This document shows positions 2,145 to 63,819 of a DNA stretch of 64,000 nt, one piece after another. Location of the stretch: contig NW_025944227.1 of NCBI RefSeq assembly GCF_000764305.2, forward strand, positions 1-64,000. The letters run 5' to 3'. The notes below the pieces were generated by a model. It ran no database searches, was not told where the DNA came from, and was given only the letters and a program-made list of their open reading frames with translations. This stretch comes from Hyalella azteca. Taxonomy: Eukaryota; Arthropoda; Malacostraca; Amphipoda; Hyalellidae. The stretch's first letter is position 1, and each line of letters begins with the position of its first letter. A program made the translations under genes and the position numbers.

Positions 2145-5100
2145 CCACGTTTCAAAAAGACTCGGAAGTTTGCAGTTCAAAGGAAAATCCTCAAAATGAC
2201 TGATGCCAGATTGTAAGTAAATTAGCATTATTGTTGTTAATTTTCTGACCATTAAAATAGAAACCAGCTTGTTAGTGTGATTAATCCTCCTGTTGTCTTC
2301 CTTTGCAGTGTACACCATATGTCCTTGGGGTATAGGGTTGAAAATACACATCATTTTGACCTGAAGACTACAGGAGAGTTGAGAGGAATAGCTAAATCAT
2401 GGCATTTATGAAATGCTAGTGAGACCAACCAATGTCTATCTTGTGTTTAACCTCTGTATAAAATTATATTATATTTTTTTCAATTATAAGAAAAGCTAGA
2501 CCAGGCTTACAGTTCACTAGAATGTACCCTTTCTGTTTTTTATTTGTAGGTTATTGTTCTTGAAGTAATTTTTCTTAATTAAGTCATAGCTTCTAACATT
2601 TTAAAAATATTTTATAATAATATTGTTTCAGTAATAATCCTTACTTTATTGCAGAAAACCTGAAGACAGAGTCATCAGAAAGAAGAAGAAGGATGAAAAT
2701 GATATACCAAAATATGAAGCGTGAGTCCATCCAGTATTTGATTTTTATTTCTGAATGTTATTGCATTGTAACATACAAGTATTAAAAGTGCCATGTATGA
2801 CACAAGAAATTCCTTGCTTGTGTAAACCATTTGCTTGGTGGTATACCGTAAATTAGTTGATAAAACTTCATCATAATTATTTAATTACAAAAAAGGATTT
2901 ATATATATATTTACATCATTGAACTGCTCTATCTTATTTTTTTCAGATGCCTATAAGCTGTACTCATAATCTTACGTCCATTTGGAAAAAGGTCAAATTA
3001 TTATTTGTATGTACTACACTAGATTTCACAATGAAAATAGAATAACAACTAACAATTTCTCTTTACAGACCACAGACAACTTCTGCCCTCTTCTTCAATT
3101 ACAACACCCAGCTTGGACCACCCTTCTTAATATTACTGGACACAAATTTCATAAATTTTGCAATAAAAGGCAAAGTGGATCTTATTGATGTGAGTTTTAT
3201 TATTAAGCCACCTGGGCCTATACCTTCAAAAGTAGCTAAGTGAACGTAAGTACTTACGCTCTATTTTCTTGTCTATGATTGGTGGATTTTGCTGAAAGGC
3301 CGTCAATGATTGGCTGATAAACTTACAATGTCTTAACTTTTTTTTTAAAGTATAGGCCCTGTTCCCCTTCAGAATTAATTTTAGACGATTATTTCAGAAT
3401 GAGATTGCTTGCCCTCAATTTAGATTTCGCATTTAATTATTAATTTTTTTATTTATGCCAATGGGGCTCCAGAATTTAATTGTAATAACAATTTAATGAT
3501 TTTTAAGCTGTAAGATCTTGATGAACCTTGCTGTTTCTGTTCTTTTGATAATTGCATCTTATTGCATTTGAAAATGCAAAGAACACTTGGTTATAATTTT
3601 TCACAGTTTTGTTACTATGGTACCTGAAACATAAGTTTGAGCAGAATAGTTCAGTACTTTAAAAGCCTTTTGAATATTTTATTCCTGAAGTTGTTATTAA
3701 TTGCAGGGTATGACAGACTGCATGTATGCCAAATGTATACCTTACCTCACTGAGTGCGTGAGAGGAGAAATGGAGCGGCTTGGTGAGCGCTACAGACTGG
3801 CTCTCAAAATACTCAAAGATCCTCGCATCAAAACTCTAACTTGTTCTCATAAAGGAATATATGCAGATGACTGCATTGTGGAGAGGGTCAGAGAGGTAGG
3901 TGCTTACTAGCTCTTATGATGATCCTTTGCAAGGTGAGTTATTGCAGCTTATGGCTTATGAGGCACGTAGTTGTGTTTGGTGCACATTTTGTGAGGTCCA
4001 AGCACAATTGTGCTTGAAGTTAGTGCAGCTATACTCGTATACTTTTTCTTTGTTTCTAATTGCCATTGACCTAACATAATAAGAACACGAACATTAAAAA
4101 TAAGTGAAATAATATTGAATCATAAATTAGACATAGATCTTACTCTGTAACAGGGCTTTAAAAAATAAAATTTAATGCTTTCTTGTGTTTTTAGACCAAA
4201 TTGACTAAAAATAGTATGTGTGTGAAGATAATTTTTTTGTTACTATACCGAGAATTGTTTGGTAACATGTATTGTTAATGATATATTGCGGGTTGTTTCC
4301 TTACTGCCCCAGTAATGATGTAATCATGATTGTACTTTATTATTGTGTTGTGCAGCACAAGTGCTACATCGTGGCCACGTGCGACAAGCTCCTAAAGCGA
4401 TTCTACATTAATATGATGATTCTACATCAATAATTATTATTGTATGGTTATTCTTCATTGATTTTTGTTCTTATTGATAATCTCGCCCACTACTCACAAT
4501 GTTATTGTGTTGTGCAGCACAAGTGCTACATCGTGGCCACGTGCGACAAGCTCCTAAAGCGATTCTACATTAATATGATGATTCTACATTAATAATTCTT
4601 ATTATATGGTTATTTATCATTGATTTTTGTTCTCCGTGATAATCTTGCCCACGACTCACAATGTTTGTGTTGTGCAGCACAAGTGCTACATCGTGGCCAC
4701 ATGCGACAAGCTCCTAAAGCGATTCTACATTAATATGATGATTCTACATTAATAATTATTATTGTATGGTTATTCTTCATTGATGTTCGTTCTTCGTGAT
4801 AATCTCGCCCACGACTCACAATGTTTGTGTTGTGCAGCACAAGTGCTACATCGTGGCCACATACGACAAGCTCCTCAAGCGATTCTACATTAATATGATG
4901 ATTCTACATTAATAATTATTATTGTATGGTTATTCATCGTTGATGTTTGTTCTTATTGATAATCTCGACTACTACTCACAATGTTACTGTGTTGTGCAGC
5001 ACAAGTGCTACATCGTGGCCACGTGCGACAAGCTTCTCAAGCGCCGCATCAGGAAAATTGTTGGAGTCCCCATCATGAGCGTCGGCCAGCGCAAGTGCGT

Positions 5101-62624: not shown

Positions 62625-63819
62625 TTACTTAGAGAATGTGAGCCATTGCTGCGGGTTTGTGGTGAGGAAAGCCGACACGACGTCTGGAGCCAAACCTCGC
62701 GAGATCATCTTGGGCACAACATTCTCGAAGATGTGGCAGAATCCGTGCCCGCCGTACTCAGTCTACAAAAATTAATGAGTTTACATTTTTAAACACTCAG
62801 GTATTAACTACCGGTACTAACAAATGCTAGTCCAAGAAAATTGATTATTAGAAGTAGGTTGTTAGAATCCATGAAAGAACAAAGAGAATGAGGTTTTCTG
62901 TTCATCAATGACGCTTTCAATAAAATCGGAAGTAAAATATAGAAATGTGCAATGTAAAACTTTCAAACAACATGATATCTAGAAACATTTGTCGACCAGA
63001 AATACAGTGACATATATTAAAAATATAAAGTTGATTAAGACAATACAATACCAGTCAGTTTCTCGAGTGGATGTCATCATAGATGAGAATTTAGATTAAA
63101 TCTAACTATCCAGGAGTAGAAAACATTTGACAATACCGTCATACCAGTCTGTTGCGGATGTAGATGTCATTACAGCTGAGAATTAAAAATAAATCTAACT
63201 AATTCAGCAGTAGAAAACATTTGACAATACCGTCATACATCTGTTGCGGGGTGGATGTCATCACAGCTGAGAATTAACAATAAATCTATCTACTCAGTAG
63301 CAGAAAACATTTGACAACACGTCATACCAGTCTGTTGCGGGGGTAGATATTATCACAGCTAAGAATTAACAATAAATCTAAACTATATTATCACAGCTAA
63401 AAATTAACAATAAATCCAACTATTCAGTAGCAGAAAACATTTGACAACGTCATACCAGTCTATCGCGGGCATATATGTCATCACAGCTGAGAATTAACAA
63501 TAAATCTATCTACTCAGGAGTTGAAAACATGTCATCACAGCTGAGAATCATCAATAAACCCAAGTATTCAGTAGCAGAAAACACTTGACACTACGTCATA
63601 CCAGTCTGTTGCGGGTATGGATGTCGTGAGATATAAGGATTCGGTCGGCATAGCCGCACTCGACGAGGTGCTTGATGCGCGCGATGCGCTGAGCATCAGA
63701 CGGCATGTCGACGGCCGCGTTGAGCTGATAGTGCGATGTCTCCAGCCCGAACAGGTCGTACTCCAGGTAGCTGCCCAAGGCTGCCAGCTCTGCTAGACCC
63801 TCCATGGTGTGGATCGTAC
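62625..63819 (-). CDS. PTER: Phosphotriesterase-related protein PTER, 3' part
   Basis: The last two exons, 63819-63602 and 62762-62625, are in the window; earlier exons lie beyond the right edge. They encode TIHTMEGLAELAALGSYLEY, DLFGLETSHYQLNAAVDMPS, ADRILISHDIHTRNRL, then TEYGGHGFCHIFENVVPKM and LTTNPQQWLTFSK before the stop. This matches the C-terminal third of PTER, an amidohydrolase-fold zinc enzyme; the mammalian enzyme has been reported to hydrolyse N-acetyltaurine. The Asp of SHDIHT corresponds to the conserved metal-binding Asp. Phases agree. The intron between the two exons holds a tandem array derived from the donor of the first. Confidence 0.92.
63040..63601 (-). repeat. Tandem copies of PTER exon end plus donor
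   Basis: On the minus strand the exon end catccatacccgcaacagac with donor tg/gtatgacg at 63602 is followed by five diverged copies (near 63470, 63340, 63238, 63145 and 63055). Each is separated by units with tgttttctactgctgaatag and attgttaattctcagctgtg. At least three copies keep the gt donor. Confidence 0.88.

What the first reader, a model, noticed from the sequence alone, without database searches (positions are those of the whole stretch)
4320..63601. Recurrent exon-boundary minisatellites in five of eight genes
Tandem arrays in FCF1, METTL13 (at least four junctions), ASTE1, CC2D1 and PTER each use as repeat unit a piece that spans an exon-intron boundary: coding bases, the functional splice site and adjacent intron. 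Both acceptors and donors are affected, with periods from 19 to 162 bases and 2 to about 18 copies. The true junction is at the end of the array where the exon is intact. Independent recurrence in unrelated genes suggests a process in this genome that amplifies splice junctions, for example replication slippage seeded in GC-richer exon edges and tolerated because one intact site survives. It would create decoy splice-site chains and enlarge introns. That no named class fits is my judgement from memory.
Basis: partly seen in the sequence, partly recalled or inferred. Interest (0 to 1): 0.88.

Follow-up and report, generated by a model that had tools for sequence, protein, structure and literature searches.

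The report
Splice-site minisatellites in an amphipod
In a small crustacean, stretches of DNA that cover the edge between an exon and an intron have been copied in tandem, up to about 20 times, in five neighbouring genes and in a few others sampled elsewhere in its genome; ordinary copying errors that hit the rest of the introns about as often are the likely cause, and the genes probably still work because one intact edge remains.

Summary
The window is from Hyalella azteca (Amphipoda). Eight splice junctions (6 donors, 2 acceptors) in FCF1, METTL13 (four), ASTE1, CC2D1 and PTER lie in tandem arrays whose unit carries exon bases, the splice site and intron; in the seven that can be checked, the exon-proximal copy keeps the reading frame. 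A named class fits: the "mirages" of amphioxus. And targeting of junctions is not shown. With one detection rule for all positions and a correction for copy number, 7 of 80 window junctions are duplicated against 6.4 expected from introns of the same genes; elsewhere in the assembly 10 of 192 against 5.9; together 17 against 12.3 (ratio 0.8-2.2). Other results lean towards an edge excess and are reported: two array-based tests (P 0.001-0.003 and 0.018), and the outside sample before a filter that I tightened afterwards (12 of 196 against 6.4, P 0.03). A mild bias is therefore possible. Junction arrays also occur in a RasGEF and two kinesin genes. Likely mechanism: largely untargeted local tandem duplication, tolerated where an intact exon-proximal site is left. 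Some arrays sit at assembly faults, so their copy numbers are unsafe.

The parts
4343..5043 (+). FCF1 exon-6 acceptor array, 5 copies of 160-162 bp (13 nt intron end + 44 nt exon + about 105 nt intron; the last copy is cut at 5043)
   Evidence: TRF 160 x 4.4
5000..5094 (+). FCF1 exon 6, intact; acceptor at 5000 is the last copy of the array
   Evidence: frame and homology
13546..13762 (+). METTL13 exon 3, intact; true donor after 13762
13749..14181 (+). METTL13 exon-3 donor array, irregular; 7 cores TGTC[CG]gtaagt
14802..14915 (+). METTL13 exon-4 acceptor array, 6 x 19 bp; left end abuts an adapter-like sequence at 14765-14802
14907..15028 (+). METTL13 exon 4, intact; true acceptor at 14907
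15910..16544 (+). METTL13 exon-5 donor array, 20 copies of about 31 bp, each with CCA|gtacgt or close to it (one copy has CT for GT)
15828..15930 (+). METTL13 exon 5, intact; true donor after 15930 is the first copy
17742..17884 (+). METTL13 exon 7, intact end at the first donor copy (17884); joining to a next exon cannot be checked
17871..18198 (+). METTL13 exon-7 donor, 3 copies (17871, 18036, 18182)
30405..30541 (+). ASTE1 exon ending at the duplicated donor
30483..30699 (+). ASTE1 donor array, 90 bp x 2.4 (59 exon bases)
57776..58420 (-). CC2D1 donor array, 5 copies sharing an identical 26-bp core CAGGGCAAAACG|gtgcgaacatttag; contig piece flanked by single Ns at 57616 and 58945
58407..58615 (-). 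CC2D1 exon, intact; true donor at 58407 (minus strand)
63048..63619 (-). PTER donor array, 4 recognisable copies
63602..63819 (-). PTER exon, intact; true donor at 63602 (minus strand)

Best explanation
Eight splice junctions in five genes of this Hyalella azteca contig lie inside local tandem arrays whose repeat unit carries exon bases, the splice site and intron; they are likely amphioxus-style 'mirages', predicted to arise by largely untargeted local tandem duplication and to be removed with the intron because the exon-proximal splice site stays intact. Shown: the arrays, the intact exon-proximal junction (7 of 8 checked by frame), the divergence between copies, the occurrence in other genes of the assembly, and a rate of duplication at junctions that the uniform test does not separate from that of intron interiors. 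Inferred: the duplication step (replication slippage or unequal exchange), the purge of duplications inside exons by selection, and the use of the exon-proximal site in the mRNA. No RNA was examined.
For: Eight arrays, with clean frames through the exon-proximal copy in 7 of 8. Minisatellites of period 15 or more cover 26% of 27,945 intron bases and 2.3% of 9,943 exon bases of the five genes. Uniform 24- to 40-base recurrence test, copy-number corrected: introns 7.0-8.2%, exon interiors 1.0-1.8%, junctions 7-9 of 81 (one hit, 16760, is only an assembly duplicate). Stratified by gene without it: 7 of 80 against 6.4 or 6.9 expected. Outside the window: myosin exons 2 of 54 against 1.8, predicted exons 5 of 106 against 2.8, kinesin exons 3 of 32 against 1.3; all together 17 of 272 against 12.3, ratio 0.81-2.21. 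Clear junction arrays elsewhere: acceptor x4 in a RasGEF gene, L009 (Pfam RasGEF in two stretches of the concatenate holding this exon), kinesin acceptor x2 and donor x2 on one exon in L035, kinesin donor x2 in L034. Of 45 decoy positions examined, use of 40 would bring in a stop codon, so persistence implies little use of them.
Against: A unit-level null gave 8 spanning units against 2.5-2.8 expected (P 0.001-0.003), though there the junction arrays had been sought by eye and the others by TRF; with TRF alone 5 against 2.4 (P 0.08). Array ends gather at exon edges: 13 of 26 TRF arrays span or end within 26 nt of a junction against 7.4 (P 0.018; P 0.07 and 0.08 at cut-offs of 10 and 50 nt). 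The predicted-exon sample first gave 7 of 110 against 3.3 (P 0.051); I tightened the filter after seeing that some hits were false exons within arrays. With the first filter the outside total is 12 of 196 against 6.4 (P 0.032) and the grand total 19 of 276 against 12.8 (P 0.064, ratio 0.89-2.31). With the final filter the outside total is 10 of 192 against 5.9 (P 0.078). Each of the four samples lies above expectation, so a mild bias (up to about 2.3-fold) is not excluded. The uniform rule finds only 6 of the 8 arrays (at 24 bases and 4 mismatches it misses METTL13 exon 7 and ASTE1 30541). No RNA or long-read data.
Confidence: 0.68

Rival explanations
1. A process that preferentially amplifies splice junctions, for example slippage seeded at the GC step of exon edges or linked to transcription and splicing.
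For: Unit-level excess 8 against 2.5-2.8; array ends gather at exon edges; copy-corrected recurrence rises with GC from about 6% to 20%; every sample leans slightly high and the outside sample reaches P 0.032 before the tightened filter.
Against: With equal detection and copy correction the excess vanishes in the window (7 of 80 against 6.4) and is 1.4-fold and not significant over all samples. The GC trend may rest on a few arrays. Array ends at exon edges also follow if selection stops array growth at the exon.
Confidence: 0.17
2. Assembly artefact: a short-read scaffold with wrongly expanded or misplaced pieces produced the arrays.
For: Adapter-like sequences at 14765-14802 (abutting the METTL13 exon-4 array), 18521-18558, 38541-38578 and (half) 43436; seven single Ns. 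The CC2D1 array lies on a piece bounded by Ns whose flanks are 100% identical to 53764-53942 and 53944-54403, where array and exon end are missing.
Against: Copies differ from one another (FCF1 units 91-96%, PTER 75-84%), which loops in an assembly graph would not be expected to create. The FCF1, ASTE1, PTER and METTL13 exon-3 and exon-5 arrays hold no N or adapter. Similar arrays occur on other contigs.
Confidence: 0.08
3. Functional arrays: the duplicated sites are kept by selection to regulate splicing (poison or alternative sites).
For: The 26-bp CC2D1 core is identical in all 5 copies while the rest of the unit differs; the METTL13 exon-4 decoy at -57 keeps the frame and adds 19 residues without a stop; nearly all copies keep GT or AG.
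Against: 40 of 45 decoy positions would bring in a stop. FCF1, PTER and METTL13 exon-5 decoys have diverged in their exon parts. The rate at junctions is close to that of introns, as neutral persistence predicts.
Confidence: 0.06

Closest known systems
Mirages of amphioxus (Adh3, globins BflGb6 and BflGb9, TnC; [quoted passage not shown]
   Same: Unit spans the boundary; donors and acceptors affected; units of 10-160 bp in amphioxus and 19-183 bp here; many copies keep AG/GT; authentic boundary at one end of the cluster (PMC3087553; PMC3902484).
   Different: An arthropod instead of a cephalochordate; up to 20 copies; rate at junctions compared with introns here; normal splicing (RT-PCR in amphioxus) and somatic instability (Adh3) untested here.
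[quoted passage not shown] potato RdRp case, PMC4974935, abstract and outline only)
   Same: A tandem duplication that crosses an intron-exon boundary and carries splice signals along.
   Different: No new intron is seen: the reading frame uses the original junction and the copies lie inside the existing intron. The arrays are at most raw material for such gain.
Ordinary tandem repeats of crustacean genomes (Daphnia pulex survey, PMC3152781, passages; Trinorchestia, tandem repeats 6.18% of the genome, PMC7062882, passages)
   Same: Tandem repeats are common; in Daphnia their overall density is highest in introns.
   Different: In Daphnia introns, repeats with units above 8 bp are reported much less dense than in its other regions, whereas arrays with units of 15 bp or more fill 26% of intron bases here and run over exon edges.

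Membership tests
Mirages (exon-intron boundary minisatellites) | Tandem repeat unit contains coding bases, the splice site and adjacent intron | tested here: met
   8 of 8 arrays; ASTE1 is the weakest
Mirages (exon-intron boundary minisatellites) | Both 5' and 3' boundaries affected | tested here: met
   6 of 39 donors and 2 of 42 acceptors
Mirages (exon-intron boundary minisatellites) | Authentic boundary intact at one end of the cluster and used in the reading frame | tested here: met
   intact in 8 of 8, frame checked in 7 of 8
Mirages (exon-intron boundary minisatellites) | Many copies keep AG or GT | tested here: met
   among the copies listed only one of METTL13 exon 5 (CT) and one of ASTE1 lack it
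Mirages (exon-intron boundary minisatellites) | Regular splicing of the mRNA is not disturbed | not testable with these tools
   no RNA data held
Mirages (exon-intron boundary minisatellites) | Length instability between haplotypes or in the soma | tested here: inconclusive
   CC2D1 has a version with and one without the array, but with 100% identical flanks, so an assembly fault is as likely
Intron gain by tandem duplication | A new spliced intron inside formerly exonic sequence | tested here: not met
   frames join at the original junctions
Dispersed intron-generating elements (introners; recalled from memory) | Near-identical copies in many genes | tested here: not met
   the FCF1 array sequence has one place in the 519-Mb assembly; only this array was tested

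The most novel reading that the evidence does not exclude
Hyalella azteca carries a genome-wide load of mirages: a few per cent of all splice junctions sit in chains of up to 20 near-identical competing splice sites, which accumulate as freely as repeats inside introns because the exon-proximal site always wins. It would be a natural series of splice-choice experiments and a steady source of intron growth and new introns in an arthropod.
Probability: 0.45. Interest if true: 0.65.

Novelty: new member of a known kind. Interest (0 to 1): 0.5.

Why it matters
It takes a phenomenon described in amphioxus to a crustacean used as a laboratory model, in several unrelated genes, and puts a first number on it: in this window junctions are duplicated about as often as ordinary intron positions and several times more often than exon interiors. 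If RNA confirms that only the exon-proximal site is used, METTL13 exon 5 (about 20 near-identical donors 31 bp apart) is a ready test of how the spliceosome chooses among equal sites, and the arrays a testable source of intron lengthening.

Tried and rejected
Rejected: (1) junction targeting as the main account, by the uniform test, with the contrary results told in the Against line. A first comparison with raw intron recurrence (27%) made junctions look depleted; I dropped it because it counts each copy of an array, and corrected for copy number. (2) A dispersed element: the FCF1 array has one place in the assembly. (3) A pure assembly artefact: copies diverge. (4) A class without a name: mirages are named.

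Rows dropped: three arrays (17266 AT-rich, 58869 assembly copy of 54328, 50623 within an exon); junction 16760 (its only copy lies across an N); five or six predicted exons with a recurrent midpoint; instead seven predicted exons lying mostly inside arrays (a filter chosen) and three myosin hits without an exon model; one kinesin hit without a model. Myosin and kinesin stretches were picked by hand from the hit lists by exon density, not by repeats; C3480 (muscle myosin, known tandem alternative exons, recalled) was left out, and C226, whose kinesin hits show a duplication, was not fetched. Some hits that I kept are doubtful (ASTE1 30132; L006 1016, L009 5290 and L011 6188, perhaps not true exon ends; L030 215), which inflates the junction count. 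One acceptor (ASTE1, 32006) was wrong by 2 bases until, and one CC2D1 donor (48670) is not at a GT. The exon predictor was trained on the window where it was checked.

Literature: eight searches. Among the papers that I opened, boundary-spanning repeats bear this name only in lancelets; the reniform-nematode paper's 'Mirage' is a transposon class; other listed papers were not opened. Subscription papers are not held, and Canestro et al. 2002 (PMC117041) was not available.

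Full report
What and where. The large ASTE1 exon (31943-35584) is 100% identical to LOC108664496 of Hyalella azteca, and that protein's contig of 115,411 bp has the length of the window's contig G000:C3895. Hyalella azteca is an amphipod. The gene names were checked by Pfam (Fcf1, CC2D1A-B_DM14, PTE; a weak, below-cut-off methyltransferase match for METTL13), by homologues of METTL13, FCF1 and ASTE1 and by clean frames across the exons.

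The observation. Eight of 81 tested junctions lie in arrays whose unit spans the boundary: the FCF1 exon-6 acceptor; METTL13 exon-3 donor, exon-4 acceptor, exon-5 donor and exon-7 donor; the ASTE1 donor at 30541; the CC2D1 donor at 58407; the PTER donor at 63602. Copies number about 2.4 (ASTE1, TRF) to 20 and periods run from 19 to 183 bases. In each case the exon is complete only next to the copy at one end of the array, and in seven cases that copy joins the next exon in frame. METTL13 exon 7 cannot be checked: the next exon seems to be missing from the assembly, since the frames of 17884 and 18958 do not join (the human protein, recalled, has about 60 more residues there) and an adapter-like sequence lies between them.

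Are the arrays real? Copies differ: FCF1 full units are 91-96% identical and PTER units 75-84%. But the assembly shows short-read faults at repeats: four adapter-like sites (their Nextera mate-pair identity is recalled), seven single Ns, and a CC2D1 piece (57617-58944) whose flanks are identical to 53764-54403, where the array and the exon end are missing. Copy numbers in METTL13 exons 4 and 7 and in CC2D1 should not be trusted.

Is there an excess at junctions? I used one rule for every position: does the 24-base window (also 30 and 40) recur within 700 bases (1000 in one setting) with few mismatches? Because an array multiplies its own positions, each intron position was weighted by one over its copy number. 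Introns then score 7.0-8.2%, exon interiors 1.0-1.8%, junctions 7-9 of 81. Stratified by gene and without an assembly duplicate, 7 of 80 junctions against 6.4 or 6.9 expected (P about 0.5). At 24 bases the rule finds 6 of the 8 arrays, plus one doubtful site (ASTE1 30132). Two other tests lean the other way: placing repeat units at random gives 8 observed against 2.5-2.8 (P 0.001-0.003), but there junction arrays had been sought more closely than others, and TRF alone gives 5 against 2.4 (P 0.08); and array ends gather at exon edges (13 of 26 against 7.4, P 0.018), which selection halting arrays at exons would also produce. When whole arrays are placed at random, 5 span a junction against 5.5 expected.

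Outside the window. I took the rest of the contig and 17 stretches of other contigs on a grid (3 of 20 asked did not exist), and exons placed by Pfam searches for myosin and kinesin, picked by hand from the hit lists. Exons in the first set came from a simple predictor trained on the window (on that same window 29 of 41 predictions overlap listed exons, and 53 of their 58 ends are exact). Junction hits: predicted exons 5 of 106 (2.8 expected), myosin 2 of 54 (1.8), kinesin 3 of 32 (1.3). Together with the window 17 of 272 against 12.3, ratio 0.81-2.21. The predicted exons had first given 7 of 110 against 3.3; I then tightened the filter against false exons inside arrays. With the first filter the outside total is 12 of 196 against 6.4 (P 0.032) and the grand total 19 of 276 against 12.8 (P 0.064). 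Strong targeting is thus unlikely, a mild one open. Intron recurrence there is about 9% raw, against about 26% in the window's genes and 47% in METTL13, so this window is unusually rich. New cases: an acceptor array of 4 copies in a RasGEF gene (L009), an acceptor and a donor array on one kinesin exon (L035) and a donor array in another kinesin gene (L034), probably an acceptor pair in a myosin gene (L030 at 1580 and 1882), and a two-copy donor in a PHD-finger-like exon (L011; named by eye, no Pfam match).

How it likely works. A local tandem duplication (slippage or unequal exchange; inferred) that crosses a junction leaves one junction joined to the complete exon; the other copies become intron. 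Duplications inside exons are rare, presumably purged. Of 45 decoy positions, use of 40 would bring in a stop; one, METTL13 exon 4 at -57, would keep the frame and add 19 residues. That such arrays are about as common at junctions as in introns suggests that decoys are seldom used; this was not tested on RNA.

What it is. [quoted passage not shown] similar repeats are told of PGBD5 (PMC3902484, passage). Anatomy and size agree. The eight literature searches showed me no arthropod case under this name, which is a statement about those searches, the papers I opened and an open-licence library only.

Verdict. Observation confirmed; a known kind of feature, new for a crustacean as far as I could search; no sound evidence of strong targeting, while a mild bias remains open.

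Noticed in passing
window 14765-14802, 18521-18558, 38541-38578, 43436: Adapter-like sequence CTGTCTCTTATACACATCTAGATGTGTATAAGAGACAG (only its second half at 43436) left in the assembly; two sites abut METTL13 arrays.
   Followed up: partly
window 57617-58944 against 53764-54403: The same CC2D1 piece twice, flanks 100% identical, once with and once without the array and exon end: misplaced contig or a haplotype with a deletion.
   Followed up: partly
window 1-258 against 11262-11519: A 98.8% copy of METTL13 exon 2 and its donor lies upstream of FCF1.
   Followed up: no
window 17884-18958: METTL13 exon seemingly missing between exon 7 and the next one: frames do not join.
   Followed up: partly
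window 57933-58418: A 26-bp core around the CC2D1 donor is identical in 5 of 5 copies although the rest of the unit differs.
   Followed up: no
window 56058-56426 against 59444-59816, and 55720-56061 against 58946-59300: kb-scale duplication in CC2D1 that includes the end of exon 1 (91% and 87.5% identity).
   Followed up: no
window 12750-13420: About 13 seemingly perfect 52-bp units right of the N at 12749 (read by eye), next to diverged ones on its left; possibly an assembly expansion.
   Followed up: no
METTL13 exon 3/4 junction: The Trinorchestia METTL13 model has 31 extra residues exactly at this junction, where Hyalella has two arrays.
   Followed up: no
L009 3180-3638, L035 1559-1998, L034 87-163, L011 7062-7090, L030 1580-1882: Further junction arrays or pairs in RasGEF, kinesin (two genes), PHD-like and myosin exons.
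   Followed up: yes
G000:C226:44916-46735: Kinesin profile segments 62-138 and 137-210 each occur twice, 994 bp apart: perhaps a tandem duplication of two exons.
   Followed up: no
Trinorchestia proteins P0002, P0003, P0123: The Trinorchestia ASTE1, METTL13 and FCF1 proteins each lie on a contig of 241,895 bp, which suggests that the gene neighbourhood is conserved.
   Followed up: no
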